Shown here one piece after another: positions 5,325 to 31,621 of a stretch of 64,000 bases of DNA. Both the position numbers and the translations under genes were made by a program. The notes under the pieces were generated by a model. It was not told the DNA's origin, searched no databases, and saw only the letters and a program-made list of their open reading frames with translations. Positions within the stretch are counted from its first letter, which is position 1, and each line of letters opens with the position of its first letter. This DNA comes from an aff. Roholtiella sp. LEGE 12411 (GTDB lineage: Bacteria; Cyanobacteriota; Cyanobacteriia; Cyanobacteriales; Nostocaceae), in assembly GCF_015206995.1 (NCBI RefSeq), contig NZ_JADEXR010000013.1, positions 1-64,000 of the forward strand, in the 5' to 3' direction.

Positions 5325-5882
5325 ATGTCTGCGTCTTATATCTCAGAATCAGTCATTATAGGTTCGGATATGGCTTGGAGTCATGACAAGCAAAAGTTGC
5401 TGGTGCAGGGTGAAATTTTGGTACAGACGCGATCGCACAAGACATGGGGTGGTGCGGTGACAGCCTGGATGTATTTGCCGATGGTGCGATCGCAAGTATG
5501 GCAACAATTAACTGATTACCCCCGTTGGGTACAATATTTTCCCGATATTACCAAAAGTGAAGTAATGTCCAGAGGGGAAGTCAAGTATCTGTACCAAGCA
5601 GCACAAAAAGCTTTTTTCTTTTTCACAGCTCAAGTCGAAATTTACCTTAACGTGGTAGAAGTGCTTGGTCAGCGAATTCAATTTCGCATGGAAAAAGGAA
5701 CTTTTGAGGATTTTACCGCTAATTTAGAGCTAAAAGATTGCGGTAACGGCACACTACTTGCTTATACTGTGCAAGCTACGCCTTTAATTCCAATACCCTC
5801 AGTTTTCATTCAACAAGCAATGAACTTCGAGTTACCTACGAATATGCGTAAAATGCGACAAGTGCTTTGTAAAAGTCAATAA
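5325..5882 (+). CDS. SRPBCC (START/polyketide cyclase-like) family protein
   Basis: A 185-residue soluble protein with the SRPBCC pattern: an N-terminal strand region, then YLPMVRSQVWQQLTDYPRWVQYFPDI (split here as YLPMVRSQVWQQLTDYPRW and VQYFPDI, residues about 50-76), typical of cyclase/dehydrase folds in which a tyrosine-proline-tryptophan loop caps the ligand cavity, and a C-terminal helix (PSVFIQQAMNFELPTNMRKM). The family binds hydrophobic ligands; the ligand here is unknown. It lies 5 bases upstream of the DUF924 gene and is likely co-transcribed with it. Confidence 0.75.
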   Translation: MSASYISESVIIGSDMAWSHDKQKLLVQGEILVQTRSHKTWGGAVTAWMYLPMVRSQVWQQLTDYPRWVQYFPDITKSEVMSRGEVKYLYQAAQKAFFFFTAQVEIYLNVVEVLGQRIQFRMEKGTFEDFTANLELKDCGNGTLLAYTVQATPLIPIPSVFIQQAMNFELPTNMRKMRQVLCKSQ

Positions 5883-5887
5883 CAGCA

Positions 5888-6463
5888 ATGTCACAGGCAA
5901 AAGCTATTTTGGAATTTTGGTTTGGTCAGCCTGATGAACTGGGTTACGGTAAACCTCAACAATTTTGGTTTAGCAAAAAACCCGATTGTGATCAGGAACT
6001 GCGAACCCGGTTTCTCAAAGATTACCAAAAAGCAGCAGCAGGATATTTAGATGAGTGGATAGATTTACCAGAAACTTGTTTAGCACTGATTCTGCTGTTA
6101 GATCAATTCCCCCGAAATATGTTTCGTGATACTCCTGAAGCCTTTGCAACCGACTGGGAAGCACTCTCAGCCGCGCAACAAGCTGTTAAACAAGGCTACG
6201 ATCGCGAATTATTGCCTGTGCAACGTTGGTTTATCTATTTGCCCTTTGAACACAGCGAAAACCCTGATCATCAGCGTCAGTGTGTGAAACTCTTTCAAAA
6301 ACTCAGTGATGATACTAACAGTGCTAGTGCAATTGAGTACGCATTTCGTCACAGGGAAATAATTGAACGTTTTGGGCGCTTTCCTCATCGCAATAGTATT
6401 TTGGGACGCCTCTCAACTCCAGAGGAAGAAGAGTTTTTGCAGCAGCCAGGTTCGATATTTTAG
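5888..6463 (+). CDS. DUF924 family protein
   Basis: A 191-residue protein that matches DUF924 throughout: ILEFWFGQP and QQFWFSKKPDCDQELRTRF at the N-terminus, LALILLLDQFPRNMFRDTPE near residues 64-83, WFIYLPFEHSEN near residue 115, and FGRFPHRNSILGR near residue 163. The fold is all-helical and TPR-like; the biochemical role is not established. It follows the SRPBCC gene by 5 bases and ends before a strong hairpin at 6478-6512. Confidence 0.88.
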   Translation: MSQAKAILEFWFGQPDELGYGKPQQFWFSKKPDCDQELRTRFLKDYQKAAAGYLDEWIDLPETCLALILLLDQFPRNMFRDTPEAFATDWEALSAAQQAVKQGYDRELLPVQRWFIYLPFEHSENPDHQRQCVKLFQKLSDDTNSASAIEYAFRHREIIERFGRFPHRNSILGRLSTPEEEEFLQQPGSIF

Positions 6464-6477
6464 GGAAATTTATTGCG

Positions 6478-6512
6478 AAAAGACGCTTTTGCTATTGAGA
6501 AAAGCGTCTTTT
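6478..6512. terminator. Bidirectional intrinsic terminator after the DUF924 gene
   Basis: AAAAGACGCTTTT pairs perfectly with AAAAGCGTCTTTT around a 9-base loop. The A tract on one side and T tract on the other let it work in both directions, so it can stop the DUF924 operon from the left and anything leaking from the clpB side on the right. Confidence 0.8.
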
Positions 6513-6565
6513 CAACCTATATTTATTAGCGCTCTTTTTTGCACCTCTGCGCCAGACAAACTTGT

Positions 6566-6612
6566 TTAGCTATTAAACAACTCAACAGGTAAACGACTAA
6601 AATAAAGGCGCT
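6566..6612 (-). pseudogene. Duplicated 3' end of clpB
   Basis: On the minus strand this reads [14 protein letters not shown]-stop, almost identical to the true ClpB C-terminus at 7664-7710 ([14 protein letters not shown]-stop). The DNA match is about 45 bases with only a few differences, in direct orientation, and it ends abruptly at about 6613. It may be the remnant of an old clpB 3' end displaced by insertion of the two-gene cassette at 6694-7436, or of a lost paralogue. Confidence 0.75.
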
Positions 6613-6693
6613 TCTCTGAACTCGATAAACCATATTAATGCGTTATGGTACAGCGACTTCTTGTTAGGGCGTAACGATTGATAGGATTGAGGA

Positions 6694-7029
6694 TTACTCG
6701 TAGCGTACCTTCTTAGATTTAATCACCTCAATTACATCATCGTGCTTTTGCCCCTCAATAATATCCTTGAGATGAATCTGCCCATTAATGTATTGAACGT
6801 GGATGCGCCAGCCTGAGACTTTATCAATATCAGCACGGTAAATTGCCTGCTTCACACCCTTTACTTTATGCAGTCTCGTTTTTGGAAATTTTCTTGTTCT
6901 ATGACATTCGTTATCTTCTAACTCTGCTAAGGCTTCAAGAAAAGCAATCTTTAGCTCATCATCTGGCAAAATTTTCATGGCTTGGTAAATAATGCCATAT
7001 TCATCGCAGAGACTAAGGGTTTGTGCCAT
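6694..7029 (-). CDS. RelE/ParE-like small protein (putative toxin-module member)
   Basis: An uncharacterised protein of 111 residues. The central block, H-K-V-K-G-V-K-Q-A-I-Y-R-A-D-I-D-K-V-S-G-W-R-I-H-V-Q-Y, followed by GQIHLKDIIEGQKHDDVIE, has the strand order and basic patches of RelE/ParE-fold proteins. I place the start at the ATG at 7029; an in-frame TTG at 7035 is possible. It lies 8 bases after the neighbouring gene's stop and is transcribed with it. The pair recurs in cyanobacteria as far as I recall, but function is unproven and could also be non-toxic. Confidence 0.55.
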   Translation of the reverse strand: MAQTLSLCDEYGIIYQAMKILPDDELKIAFLEALAELEDNECHRTRKFPKTRLHKVKGVKQAIYRADIDKVSGWRIHVQYINGQIHLKDIIEGQKHDDVIEVIKSKKVRYE

Positions 7030-7037
7030 AAACAAAC

Positions 7038-7436
7038 TTAGAGGATCTGAGCAGTTTCTCGATTGCCATGAAGCAGCTCTTGATACAAAGAATCTGCTAC
7101 ATCTTTATATACTTTATCGATGTCATCGTGTTTGACTGCTCGAAAAAGAGTCAAAATAACTTGCCCAAAAATTGGATCTTCGTCAACTGCAAAAATCACG
7201 CTTAATTTTTGAGAAACCTGTAGTATGTAAAGTGAAGATTCGTAACCATTAAGATCTGAAGCTAAGGGGAGACGGCGCAGCTTAAGATAAACATCAGCTT
7301 TTTGAGTTGGGAAAAGGCTGGCGCAATCGTTAATTTTTTGAATAACTGTTACTTTCTCATCTTCACTCAGCCTAACAATATCCTTCTCAAAGCCTCTTGT
7401 TGACTCAATTAAAACATCCACGTTACGAACCGCCAA
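7038..7436 (-). CDS. RelE-like small protein, partner of the downstream gene
   Basis: A 132-residue protein. The core LKLRRLPLASDLNGYESSLY, then ILQVSQKLSVIFAVDEDPIF and LTLFRAVKHDDIDKVYK, resembles a RelE/HigB-type beta sheet (growth-arrest RNase fold), ending in a helix. No DNA-binding antitoxin domain (HTH, AbrB or RHH) is visible in it or its partner, which is unusual for a type II module. It starts 227 bases downstream of the clpB stop. Which of the two is active, if either, cannot be told from sequence. Confidence 0.55.
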   Translation of the reverse strand: MAVRNVDVLIESTRGFEKDIVRLSEDEKVTVIQKINDCASLFPTQKADVYLKLRRLPLASDLNGYESSLYILQVSQKLSVIFAVDEDPIFGQVILTLFRAVKHDDIDKVYKDVADSLYQELLHGNRETAQIL

Positions 7437-7605
7437 TCTGAATTTAACTACTTGTCCTCAACTTTTAGCATAACAACATTTTGTCTGCCGGATAAACTCG
7501 TAAGAACTTAACATCGAACTTGGACAGATAGTTTAGAATACCCTCCCTACAAAGGGATAAAGCAGCTTATCCGATAGATAGAATGTTGGCTTTGCGGTAA
7601 GTTAC

Positions 7606-7647
7606 ACAAAAAACGCAAAGACGTTCTCAACGCCTCTGCGTTTTTTT
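7606..7647 (-). terminator. Intrinsic terminator of clpB
   Basis: On the minus strand ACGCAGAGGCG pairs over 11 positions (two G-U) with CGTCTTTGCGT across a 7-base loop, followed by TTTTTT. It sits 17 bases after the clpB stop codon. The A-rich left flank would let it act on the other strand too. Confidence 0.82.
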
Positions 7648-7663
7648 GTGAGATTATCTGGAA

Positions 7664-10303
7664 TTAGCTAGTAAACAACTCAACAGGTAAGCGACTAAAA
7701 GAAAGGCGTTCATTCTCCACATCCACAAATATGGTGTCGCCGTCGTTAAATTCGCCGCGCAAAATTGCCTTGGCAATTTGAGTTTCTAACTCTCGCTGAA
7801 TTGCTCGCTTCAGGGGACGCGCTCCAAATACAGGATCATATCCTACTTCTGCTAAAAAGTCAAGAGCAGTATCAGTAAGTCTTAGAGATATCTTGCGTTG
7901 GCGAAGCCCACCGGAGGTATCGCCAAGTCTTTGTCGCAGTCTCTCTACTTGTAACAGCACAATTTGCCGCAATTCCTTCTTATCCAAGCCGTGGAAAATG
8001 ATAATTTCGTCAATCCGGTTGAGGAACTCTGGACGGAAGCTATTTCGCATCGCTTCCATCACCCGGCGGCGCATTTCGTCATAATGTGCATCATCCCCGG
8101 CGACATCGAGAATGTACTGTGAACCGATGTTGCTAGTCATGATGATAATAGCGTTTTTGAAGTCCACCTTATGACCTTGGGCATCAGTGACGCGACCATC
8201 ATCGAGAATTTGCAAGAAGATATTGAATACATCGGGATGTGCTTTCTCGATTTCGTCAAAAAGAATCACCGAATAGGGACGACGCCGAATCGCTTCTGTT
8301 AGTTGTCCGCCTTCTTCGTAACCGACGTATCCTGGAGGCGCACCAATTAATCGAGAAACAGCATGTTTCTCCATATACTCTGACATATCAATCCGCACTA
8401 GCGAGTCTTCGGTGTCGAACATATACGCCGCCAGCGCTTTCGCCAACTCGGTTTTACCCACACCTGTCGGCCCAAGGAAAATAAAACTAGCAATGGGACG
8501 ATTGGGATCAGCTAGTCCAGCACGCGATCGCTGAATTGCATCCGCTACAGCTGTAACTGCTTCATCTTGTCCAATGACTCGGTGATGTAATTCATCTTCT
8601 AAGTGCAGCAGTTTCTCCTTCTCAGATTCTACCAACTTACTAATAGGAATTCCTGTCCACTTAGAAATAATTTCGGCAATATCTGCCTCTGTTACTTCCT
8701 CTCGCAACAGCGATTTTCCAGTTTTTTGGGTGTTGGCTAGTTCATTTTCTACTGCTTCTAATTGGCGATACAAACTAGTTAACTTGCCAAACTTTAACTC
8801 CGCAGCACGGTTGAGGTCGTAGTCACGTTCTGATTGCTGAATCTCTAGGTTAACTCGCTCAATCTCTTTTTTTACCGACTGAATTTTGTCGATAATATCT
8901 TTTTCTGATTGCCATTGAGTATTGAGTGTTCTTTGTTCTTCTTTGAGATCAGCAATTTCTTTTTCTAGCCTTTCGAGACGTTCACGAGAAGCTGCATCGC
9001 TTTCTTTTTGCAGTGATAGCTTCTCCATTTCCAATTGCAGAATCTTGCGATCAATTTCGTCGAGTTCTTCTGGCTTGGAAGTAATCTCCATTTTCAGCCT
9101 AGCAGCGGCTTCGTCTACCAAATCAATGGCTTTATCTGGTAAAAAGCGATCGCTAATATATCGACTCGACAATATGGCCGCTGCAACTAAAGCACTATCA
9201 GAAATCTTCACCCCGTGGTGATTTTCATAGCGTTCTCTCAACCCGCGCAAAATCGAAATAGTATCTTCTACACTGGGTTGATCCACATAAACTTGCTGGA
9301 AACGTCTTTCCAATGCAGCATCTTTTTCGATATATTTGCGGTATTCATCCAGGGTTGTCGCCCCGATACAGCGTAATTCGCCCCGCGCTAACATTGGTTT
9401 TAATAAGTTACCAGCATCCATCGCGCCTTGAGTCGCACCAGCACCGACAACGGTATGAATTTCATCGATAAATAAAACAACATTACCACCGGATTCAGTC
9501 ACTTCTTTCAATACTGCTTTCAGGCGTTCTTCAAATTCACCCCGGAATTTTGCCCCCGCAATTAAAGCACCCATATCTAAAGCGATGAGCTTACGGTCTT
9601 TGAGTGACTGGGGTACATCACCAGCGACGATGCGCTGTGCTAGTCCTTCGGCGATCGCAGTTTTACCAACACCTGGTTCACCAATTAGTACAGGATTATT
9701 CTTGGTGCGGCGTGACAAAATTTGCACAGTGCGGCGAATCTCATCATCGCGCCCAATCACTGGATCAAGTTGACCTTTACGAGCAGCTTCTGTGAGGTCA
9801 CGCCCATATTTTTCCAGTGCTTCGTATTTGCCTTCTGGATTTTGGTCGGTCACTTTCTGGCTCCCACGAACTTGTTTAATAATATTTTTAAGCTTGCCTT
9901 CGTCTAAACCGAATTCTTGGAATAAAGCTTTGCCAAGGCGGTCATCTTTGGGGTAAGCCAGCAATAAATGTTCAACTGAGATATATTCGTCCTTAAATTC
10001 CTGACGATAGGTATCCGCTCGGTCGAGAAGTTGATCTAAACTCCGTCCCAAGTATACAGAACTACTGCTACCAGATACTTTCGGCTGACGTTGAATAAAT
10101 TGTTCAGTGCGATCGCGCAGTTTCTGAAGATTAACACCCGCTTTGGTCAAAATAACGCCGGCAAGTCCATCTTGCTCCAGCAGCGCTTTCATTAAGTGTT
10201 CGCTTTCTATCTGCTGTTGTTGATATTGTTTGACAATATCCTGGGTGTGGGCGATCGCTTCCCAGGCTTTTTCTGTAAATTGGTTGGGATTAGTTGGTTG
10301 CAT
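7664..10303 (-). CDS. clpB: ATP-dependent disaggregase ClpB
   Basis: A full-length 879-residue ClpB/Hsp104. In order: N-terminal Clp repeat domain (about 1-150), AAA1 with Walker A GEPGVGKT (about 208), Walker [16 protein letters not shown], the long middle coiled coil (about 410-530, Glu/Lys/Leu-rich), AAA2 with Walker A GPTGVGKT (about 608) and Walker [18 protein letters not shown], and the C-terminal small domain. It lacks the ClpP-binding loop expected of ClpA/C, and works with DnaK to rescue aggregated proteins. Cyanobacteria often have a heat-induced clpB1 and a constitutive clpB2; I cannot say which this is. No CIRCE element is visible upstream. Confidence 0.95.
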
Positions 10304-30667: not shown

Positions 30668-31621
30668 ATGACAATGGGAAAACGAACTCAAGCCACAGCA
30701 CTGGAAGTCCGGTTACTGCGGGAAGGTATTATTGAATCGAGGCATATAGTCCAGGCTGTTGTATGCGACGAACGGGGACGGGTTCTGACTGTTGCCGGCA
30801 ACTCGGAAACTGCTGCGTTTGTCCGTTCAGCACTCAAACCATTTCAGGCACTTGCCGTCACTGCCACAGGTACACTGGAACGCTACGACCTTAGCGATCG
30901 CGACTTGGCAATTATTACGAGTTCCCATAAAGGAACAATAGAGCAAGTCCGACAGGTATTTAACATCCTTTGGCGAGCCGATCTTGACCCTTCGGCACTC
31001 CAATGTCCGGTTCCTGAAGGTAAGCGAAGTTCTCTAGAATACAATTGCTCTGGTAAACATGCGGGAATGTTAGCCGTTTGTCAGCAACGCCATTGGCCTT
31101 TGAATAACTACTTGGAACGCAAGCACCCAATACAACAGCTGATTTTGGGCAAAGTATCAGAGTTACTGCGAATGCCAGCAGAAGAATTTATCAGCGCTCA
31201 TGACGATTGTGGCGCACCAACTTATCTGATGCAACTCGGTCAAATGGCCTCTTTGTATGCTCTTTTAGCTTCTAGCACCAATTTAGATATGGAGCGTATT
31301 GTCCGTGCCATGACTCATCACCCAGCGATGGTGGCAGGAGATGGGGAATTTGATACGGAATTGATGCGCTTAACTCCAGGAGAACTAGTAAGTAAAGCTG
31401 GTGCCGAAGGAGTGCAGTGCATTGGTAGACTTGGCGAGGGCATGGGATTGGCAATTAAAGTCATGGATGGATCAAAAAGGGCAAAATATGCCGTTGCTAT
31501 CCACTTGCTCCAGCAGATGGGCTGGATTAGTCCTAGTGCGGCAGAAAGCTTGTCAGAAAAGTTTATGACTTTGGGAAAATACAAGCGTTTGGAAGTTATT
31601 GGTGAATTATCATTTTTGTAG
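30668..31621 (+). CDS. Asparaginase (L-asparaginase II-like family)
   Basis: A 317-residue protein of the bacterial asparaginase family exemplified by Rhizobium etli AnsA-type thermolabile enzymes. Conserved blocks: R-S-A-L-K-P-F-Q-A-L (about 56-65), ITSSHKGTIEQV (about 83-94), EYNCSGKHAGMLAVCQQRHW (about 121-140), HDDCGAPTY (about 177-185) and GVQCIGRLGEGMGLAIKVMDG (split GVQCIGRLGEG and MGLAIKVMDG, about 255-275). It should hydrolyse asparagine to aspartate and ammonia. A single gene 120 bases after CGLD27; the initiator tRNA follows. Confidence 0.85.
   Translation: MTMGKRTQATALEVRLLREGIIESRHIVQAVVCDERGRVLTVAGNSETAAFVRSALKPFQALAVTATGTLERYDLSDRDLAIITSSHKGTIEQVRQVFNILWRADLDPSALQCPVPEGKRSSLEYNCSGKHAGMLAVCQQRHWPLNNYLERKHPIQQLILGKVSELLRMPAEEFISAHDDCGAPTYLMQLGQMASLYALLASSTNLDMERIVRAMTHHPAMVAGDGEFDTELMRLTPGELVSKAGAEGVQCIGRLGEGMGLAIKVMDGSKRAKYAVAIHLLQQMGWISPSAAESLSEKFMTLGKYKRLEVIGELSFL

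What the first reader, a model, noticed from the sequence alone, without database searches (positions are those of the whole stretch)
6566..7710. Two-gene RelE-like cassette bracketed by a duplicate of the clpB 3' end
About 45 bases of the clpB terminus, including its stop codon, occur again in direct orientation at 6566-6612, and the match stops abruptly. Between the copies lie just two small genes and a terminator. This looks like the footprint of a cassette that inserted at the clpB 3' end while rebuilding it, as integrative elements do at tRNA or gene ends. No integrase is visible, so it could also be a recombination scar or the relic of a second clpB.
Basis: partly seen in the sequence, partly recalled or inferred. 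Interest (0 to 1): 0.55.

Follow-up and report, generated by a model that had tools for sequence, protein, structure and literature searches.

The report
Toxin-like gene pair behind clpB tail
A small toxin-like gene pair sits between the chaperone gene clpB and a displaced copy of that gene's last 45-60 bases, most likely the scar of foreign DNA joining at the end of clpB; a distant relative carries a matching scar with different cargo.

Summary
The last 45 nt of clpB (7664-7708) recur in direct orientation at 6566-6610 (42/45); two co-directional small genes and clpB's own terminator lie between. Of the five genomes of the genus (probably Komarekiella), three have the tail copy whole, one truncated with other cargo (HNH gene), one lacks it but keeps the gene pair. 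Three other genera have clpB facing DUF924 with only 73-128 nt between. Among 96 of 217 family genomes, a strong second clpB tail occurs only in this genus and, separately, in G022, where a 31-nt exact tail copy brackets an unrelated pair (DUF433 + DUF5615). No full second clpB was seen in the stretches read; neither ORF between the repeats is an integrase. The terminator behind intact clpB is conserved in another genus without the cassette there, which argues against an element that rebuilt the gene end. Best explanation (about 0.5): incoming DNA with a clpB end plus the pair recombined in clpB at one side and joined illegitimately inside the resident clpB tail at the other. ORF1 is clearly RelE-fold, ORF2 weakly so; no antitoxin family was recognised. 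A modest but instructive finding.

The parts
5888..6463 (+). DUF924 gene, convergent neighbour; also downstream of clpB in relatives
   Evidence: Pfam PF06041 E 2.8e-70; downstream of clpB in 25 of 96 genomes
6466..6524 (.). terminator-like inverted repeat behind DUF924
   Evidence: inverted repeat I1; conserved in the genus
6566..6629 (-). displaced clpB 3' end (relic): 45 nt at 42/45, about 64 nt with gaps, starts at the stop codon
6694..7035 (-). ORF2, 113 aa, highly conserved partner, perhaps RelE/HigB-like (weak evidence), proposed toxin (inferred)
7038..7436 (-). ORF1, 132 aa as listed (start may be GTG at 7421), RelE-fold, acidic
7608..7646 (.). clpB's own terminator hairpin
7664..7708 (-). 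right copy of the repeat = true 3' end of clpB
7664..10303 (-). clpB, 879 aa
   Evidence: NCBIfam TIGR03346, 1409.8 bits, cut-off 1232.1

Best explanation
A recombination scar. DNA carrying a clpB 3' end, its terminator and, behind it, the two-gene cassette entered an ancestor in which clpB faced DUF924 about 100 nt away. One end recombined homologously inside clpB; the other, non-homologous end was joined illegitimately inside the resident clpB about 55 nt before its stop. The intact clpB is thus followed by the incoming terminator and gene pair, and the last 45-60 nt of the resident clpB stay stranded next to DUF924 (shown: structure, empty sites, terminator conservation, a second case; inferred: donor, homologous anchor, single step). 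The cassette itself is a mobile toxin-antitoxin-like pair that may favour its own retention (inferred).
For: Structure and identity. Relic to DUF924 spacing is 102 nt, like three empty sites at 73, 98, 128 nt. The 62 nt after the intact clpB align with the same place in G437, G436, G435 and G030 at score 57-63; of 49,702 windows elsewhere in the downstream stretches of 91 genomes none reached 57 (best 50). No ORF1 or ORF2 lies in those genomes' stretches. Relic whole in G000, G002, G003 and truncated in G004. Second case in G022: the last 31 nt of its clpB, exact, lie 1.1 kb downstream with a DUF433 + DUF5615 pair between. G463, same genus as G022: a 146-nt internal clpB piece 1.1 kb downstream, behind a Uma2 gene. 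No other strong case in 96 genomes, 1.29 Mb of downstream sequence. Precedent: displaced 3' ends explained by homology-facilitated illegitimate recombination in Vibrio cholerae (PMC5361080, passages read). Homologues of comEC and dprA are present in the genome, but both families also ring in most of the 14 control genomes, so this only permits DNA uptake.
Against: G001 has the cassette without the relic; my deletion reading rests on an alignment judged by eye and one poor pairwise alignment. No donor with clpB-terminator-cassette and an unrelated left flank was found. The G000 relic is closest to its own genus's clpB (42/45), so a foreign resident allele is not shown; the other-genus bases in the G002/G003/G004 relics are few. 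The fifth g27 genome, G434, lacks the terminator similarity (score 28), and G022, far off and with its own scar, has it (64). In G463 the piece matches its own clpB better (95.9%) than G022's (93.8%) and is internal, so it does not fit a simple displaced 3' end. The clpB and the cyclase-DUF924 trees of the genus differ, the latter weakly supported.
Confidence: 0.5

Rival explanations
1. Relic of a complete second clpB: clpB and cassette were duplicated or acquired in tandem, then the distal clpB was deleted down to its last 45-60 nt.
For: A relic in the same orientation that runs to the stop codon; G463 keeps an internal clpB piece downstream of its clpB.
Against: No full or half-size second clpB in the downstream stretches of 96 genomes; needs two steps; the relic is not followed by the clpB terminator that a duplicate would carry.
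Confidence: 0.18
2. Site-specific integration at the clpB 3' end: an element carried a copy of the tail as attachment site and rebuilt the gene on insertion, with the recombinase lost or supplied from elsewhere.
For: Direct repeats that reach the stop codon in two unrelated lineages with different cargo; empty sites. In Pseudomonas syringae an ICE-derived island of about 70 kb lies between clpB and hopR (PMC12388829, passages), so integration near clpB is known elsewhere.
Against: Neither ORF of the interval is a recombinase; the terminator beside intact clpB is not element-specific; among 143 cassette loci the clpB tail occurs only in this genus; the copy length differs (31 against 45-64 nt).
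Confidence: 0.12
3. The cassette is a mobile unit that duplicates 27-70 nt of whatever target it enters (long target duplication), clpB's end being one target.
For: 5 of 77 named cassette loci have a direct repeat across the cassette at E<1e-5, against 6 of 1200 and 22 of 3000 random placements; without the clpB case 4 of 76, Fisher p about 0.003.
Against: One of the four (L265) is a GCGATCGC-rich 72% match; at E<1e-10 the excess is 2 of 76 against 13 of 3000, p about 0.05; the repeats share no sequence or placement; no transposase between them; terminator evidence. It cannot explain G022, whose cargo differs.
Confidence: 0.1
4. Filler: the tail was copied from clpB into the junction during repair of a break downstream, separately from the arrival of the cassette.
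For: G001 has the cassette without the relic; the G463 piece is internal to clpB.
Against: The relics of both lineages reach the stop codon and lie on the far side of the cargo.
Confidence: 0.1

Closest known systems
Homology-facilitated illegitimate recombination with displaced gene 3' ends (V. cholerae T6SS effector-immunity arrays, PMC5361080; Rhs displacement cited there)
   Same: An incoming module sits behind a conserved stretch; the resident gene's 3' end is stranded further downstream; no integrase known.
   Different: Here the gene is an intact housekeeping chaperone and the cargo a toxin-antitoxin-like pair; the homologous anchor was not demonstrated.
Toxin-antitoxin module fenced by direct repeats behind MaOC1 in Microcystis (PMC7935541, passages read)
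   Same: Cyanobacterial RelE/ParE-type module behind a host gene, flanked by direct repeats.
   Different: There the repeats are 152 bp, identical, begin 14 bp after the stop codon and hold an inverted repeat; here they are the gene's own coding tail.
Type II RelBE/HigBA toxin-antitoxin systems
   Same: Two small co-directional genes; ORF1 model best matches RelE1, RelE, YoeB/ParE (Z 10.4, 10.3, 10.1; rmsd 2.0, 1.8, 2.2; aligned 82, 78, 79).
   Different: No recognised antitoxin family; both partners look RelE-like (ORF2 weakly); no Pfam match under 0.01 and no NCBIfam match under 0.001.

Membership tests
Integrative element at a gene 3' end | recombinase gene in the element | tested here: not met
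   The two larger ORFs between the repeats (132 and 113 aa) have no recombinase match; smaller ORFs and the wider window were not scanned
Integrative element at a gene 3' end | direct repeat of the gene end at the far side | tested here: met
   42/45
Integrative element at a gene 3' end | sequence right after the rebuilt gene comes from the element | tested here: not met
   Terminator conserved behind clpB in 4 of 5 g27 genomes without the cassette there; 0 of 49,702 control windows as good; rests on a 62-nt alignment
Integrative element at a gene 3' end | excision or circular form | not testable with these tools
   needs PCR or reads
Scar of homology-facilitated illegitimate recombination | displaced 3' part of the resident gene beyond the cargo | tested here: met
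   second case
Scar of homology-facilitated illegitimate recombination | homologous anchor with a donor allele in the intact gene | tested here: inconclusive
   Relic carries other-genus bases in G002, G003, G004 but not in G000; trees weak
Scar of homology-facilitated illegitimate recombination | non-homologous junction at the other end | tested here: inconclusive
   Similarity ends at about 6629; the junction itself has decayed
Type II toxin-antitoxin system (RelBE-like) | co-directional, tightly spaced gene pair that moves as a unit | tested here: met
   All 50 genomes with ORF2, of 291 searched, also have ORF1; spacing -20 to +15 nt in 75 of 80 named loci
Type II toxin-antitoxin system (RelBE-like) | RelE-fold toxin | tested here: met
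   Fold only: ORF1 pLDDT 86.8, Z up to 10.4 to RelE/YoeB; ORF2 pLDDT 62.7, Z up to 6.1, weak
Type II toxin-antitoxin system (RelBE-like) | recognisable DNA-binding antitoxin | tested here: inconclusive
   No family match for either protein; both models look RelE-like
Type II toxin-antitoxin system (RelBE-like) | toxicity and neutralisation | not testable with these tools
   bench test needed

The most novel reading that the evidence does not exclude
The clpB 3' end in Nostocales is a recurrent capture site: an unrecognised process without an encoded recombinase lodges small toxin-like modules behind gene ends and copies the last 30-60 nt of the gene to the far side, so the host gene stays intact. 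Coupled to it, the pair here would be a new toxin-antitoxin type in which an acidic RelE-fold protein neutralises a basic RelE-fold partner.
Probability: 0.12. Interest if true: 0.65.

Novelty: new member of a known kind. Interest (0 to 1): 0.35.

Why it matters
It shows, with partial, deleted and swapped states in one genus, empty sites in others and a second case in a distant genus, how toxin-antitoxin-sized modules can enter a chromosome beside a conserved gene without an encoded transposase, leaving a stranded gene tail as a readable scar. Such tails could be used to count one-sided acquisition events across bacterial genomes.

Tried and rejected
Element with rebuilt gene end: rejected as first choice because of the conserved clpB terminator. 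Relic extended to include half of the clpB terminator: considered from the G002/G003 flank, dropped because the DUF924 flank of G007 looks similar (by eye) and hairpins of this kind are frequent behind clpB in other genera. Displaced foreign allele in G463: I first read the 146-nt piece so because it matched G022 at 94%; the full gene showed 95.9% to its own clpB, so that reading was dropped. Asymmetric decay of ORF2 as a toxin sign: dropped on recount, since in-frame stops occur in 13 listed ORF1 places and 5 listed ORF2 places, although ORF2 is cut short or split in five genomes. Plasmid or phage vehicle: ORF2 found in 2 of 72,556 plasmid records and in 0 of 50,697 phage records, 1 weak viral contig. 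Empty site for L205: the order-wide DNA search gave no clean one. Direct repeats around the cassette elsewhere: 10 of 76 named loci in a first, loose test, 5 of 77 in the tight one. Six cassette loci read for repeats: none in three, only one-sided, internal or low-complexity ones in the others. Weak tail-like hits left out as chance-like: G384 (q 3-39, E 8e-4, stronger than any control hit, best control 0.006), G398 (E 0.006), and 17-nt hits in G330 and G333 (E 0.04); the two control segments gave 10 and 3 hits at E up to 0.05. Rfam: no match in 6400-7800 at gathering scores. Literature: clpB + integrase + attB + genomic island gave one paper, read for passages; it places an ICE-derived island between clpB and hopR in Pseudomonas syringae. 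A five-term search on displaced gene fragments and toxin-antitoxin gave none. On RelE-like antitoxins one search failed and one search gave 14 papers, 12 listed, of which I read passages of PMC7935541 and PMC2701414; those passages do not describe this pair.
Full report
WHAT IS THERE. The clpB gene runs on the minus strand (7664-10303). Its last 45 nt, stop codon included, recur in the same orientation at 6566-6610 with 42 of 45 identical. With gaps the similarity continues to about 6629. Between the copies lie ORF1 (7038-7436, possibly starting at a GTG at 7421), ORF2 (6694-7035), both on the minus strand like clpB, and a hairpin at 7608-7646. Left of the relic is DUF924 (5888-6463, plus strand), preceded by a polyketide-cyclase-like gene (5325-5882). 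In 10 shuffles the best match of the tail was 25/45, so the repeat is not chance.

THE GENUS. Five genomes of the genus are held. G000 and G002 have relic, cassette and clpB. G003 has relic and clpB but an internal deletion fused the first 33 codons of ORF1 to the last 27 of ORF2. G004 has the DUF924 side and a truncated relic, then an HNH gene and a 79-aa ORF instead of the cassette. G001 has the cassette but no relic; the flank reads as a deletion between short CTCTGC-like repeats, and a 94-bp insert with 12-nt inverted ends and a 9-bp duplication sits there (my reading by eye). On the clpB tree G001 and G004 are sisters (100/99), and G004 keeps part of the relic, so loss in G001 is the simpler reading; the cyclase-DUF924 tree differs with weak support.

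THE FAMILY. I examined 96 of the 217 family genomes found: 35 with a few kb downstream of clpB, 60 with up to 20 kb, and the window. DUF924 lies downstream of clpB in 25 of 96; in 15 of these 25 a Nif11-like gene is there too; in G028, G031 and G382 the DUF924 C-terminus is only 73, 98 and 128 nt from the clpB stop. In the genus the relic lies 102 nt from DUF924, as an empty site would. A repeat of the own clpB tail at E<1e-7 was found only in G000, G002, G003 and G022, each direct and reaching the stop codon; two control segments further up clpB gave no hit better than E 0.006. With the G000 clpB as query, 1.29 Mb of downstream sequence gave clpB fragments only in G000, G002, G003 and G463 (the short G022 tail is below that search's reach).

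THE SECOND CASE. In G022 (genus g19) the last 31 nt of its clpB recur exactly 1.1 kb downstream, and between the copies lie a DUF433 protein and a DUF5615 protein in the orientation of clpB. That DUF433 and DUF5615 form a toxin-antitoxin pair is recalled, not tested. G463 of the same genus has a Uma2 gene behind clpB and then a 146-nt internal clpB piece, 95.9% identical to its own clpB and 93.8% to G022's. So clpB debris behind clpB with small cargo between arose at least twice, probably three times (inference).

WHICH END IS OLD. Right after the intact clpB comes a spacer of 16 nt and a hairpin. The 62 nt there align with the same place in G437, G436, G435 and G030 (g27) at scores 57-63, and in G022 at 64. 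A shuffled control reached 21; a stricter one, 49,702 windows elsewhere in the downstream stretches of 91 genomes, reached 50 at most. The fifth g27 genome, G434, scores only 28. No ORF1 or ORF2 lies in the downstream stretches of any genome examined outside the genus, though G030 has an ORF2-like match far from clpB. The intact clpB therefore keeps a terminator that belongs to clpB, while the relic lacks it. An element that inserts at a gene end and rebuilds it would show the reverse. A one-sided acquisition explains it in one step: clpB end, terminator and cassette came together, and the resident tail was stranded beside DUF924. The relics of G002 and G003 (36 and 37 of 45 to their own clpB) and G004 (16 of 16 to G475, G474, G320, G144 and G029, 12-13 of 16 to the genus's own) carry bases seen in other genera, but the G000 relic is closest to its own genus (42/45), so the origin of the resident allele stays open.

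THE CASSETTE. ORF1 and ORF2 homologues were sought in 291 genomes of the order: ORF1 in 56, ORF2 in 50; all 50 with ORF2 have ORF1, 6 have ORF1 only. Both genes show damaged copies. In 80 named loci (111 relatives were found, the best 80 kept) the pair occurs mostly in cyanobacteria and also in planctomycete, Methylococcaceae and Deltaproteobacteria records; spacing is -20 to +15 nt in 75 of 80, wider in L224, L250, L252 and L263, and L265 shows no ORF1-like frame. Of 143 cassette loci searched for the clpB tail, it was found only in the four from this genus (L032, L062, L188, L197). Identity to the window protein is 71-97% for ORF2 and 24-79% for ORF1 in the alignments used. ORF1 is modelled well (pLDDT 86.8) and matches RelE and YoeB toxins (Z about 10). 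ORF2 is modelled poorly (62.7) with weak RelE/HigB matches (Z up to 6.1). ORF1 is mostly acidic (median pI 5.1, range 4.4-9.4, 31 of 34 rows, the three long fusions left out), ORF2 mostly basic (median 8.6, range 6.5-9.5, 32 rows). I infer a toxin-antitoxin-like pair, with ORF2 as the likelier toxin because ORF1 occurs alone in 6 genomes and ORF2 in none; no recognised antitoxin family matched.

IS THE CASSETTE ITSELF THE CAUSE? Around 77 named cassette loci, 5 have a direct repeat across the cassette at E<1e-5, against 6 of 1200 and 22 of 3000 random placements. Leaving out the clpB case gives 4 of 76, p about 0.003; with a stricter limit 2 of 76, p about 0.05. L221 (49 nt, inside what looks by eye like a RelE-like toxin gene) and L255 (72 nt) are the strong ones. 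This keeps open, but does not show, that the cassette makes long target duplications.

LITERATURE. In V. cholerae, displaced effector 3' ends and immunity genes are explained, as a putative mechanism, by homology-facilitated illegitimate recombination (PMC5361080, passages). In Microcystis a toxin-antitoxin module behind MaOC1 is fenced by 152-bp direct repeats (PMC7935541, passages). I found no paper on clpB tails as such scars in the searches made, which cover open-licence papers only and of which I saw mainly listings.

VERDICT. It is most likely a recombination scar of a known kind, at a place where such scars recur, with an unclassified RelE-fold gene pair as cargo.

Noticed in passing
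G001 contig C192 about 31370-31463 (in L123): A 94-bp insert with 12-nt perfect inverted ends and a 9-bp duplication ATATTGGTG near the relic site, MITE-like; its exact start pattern occurs once in 60 genomes.
   Followed up: partly
L109 (G022), about 1.0-1.1 kb downstream of clpB: The clpB tail copy is joined in frame to a preceding open stretch ending NALDKVLDNQEQYLL, so a short frame now ends in the ClpB tail RVPVELFTS; no Pfam match (reading frame by eye).
   Followed up: partly
L205 2022-2048 and 3014-3040; L221 3271-3319 and 4352-4400; L255 3270-3341 and 4400-4471: Direct repeats bracket the same gene pair at three unrelated places, two of them beside what look by eye like other toxin-antitoxin genes.
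   Followed up: partly
L250, L252, L263 (Rubripirellula, Roseiconus, Planctomycetaceae records): ORF1 is the C-terminal part of a protein of about 330 aa, still followed by ORF2.
   Followed up: no
L094 (G007), L112 (G025), L105 (G018) and others, between clpB and DUF924: A Nif11-domain ORF lies downstream of clpB in 15 of the 25 genomes with DUF924 there and in none of the five of this genus.
   Followed up: partly
L126 (G004), between clpB and DUF924: The slot holds an HNH gene and a 79-aa ORF instead of the RelE-like pair, next to a truncated clpB tail.
   Followed up: partly
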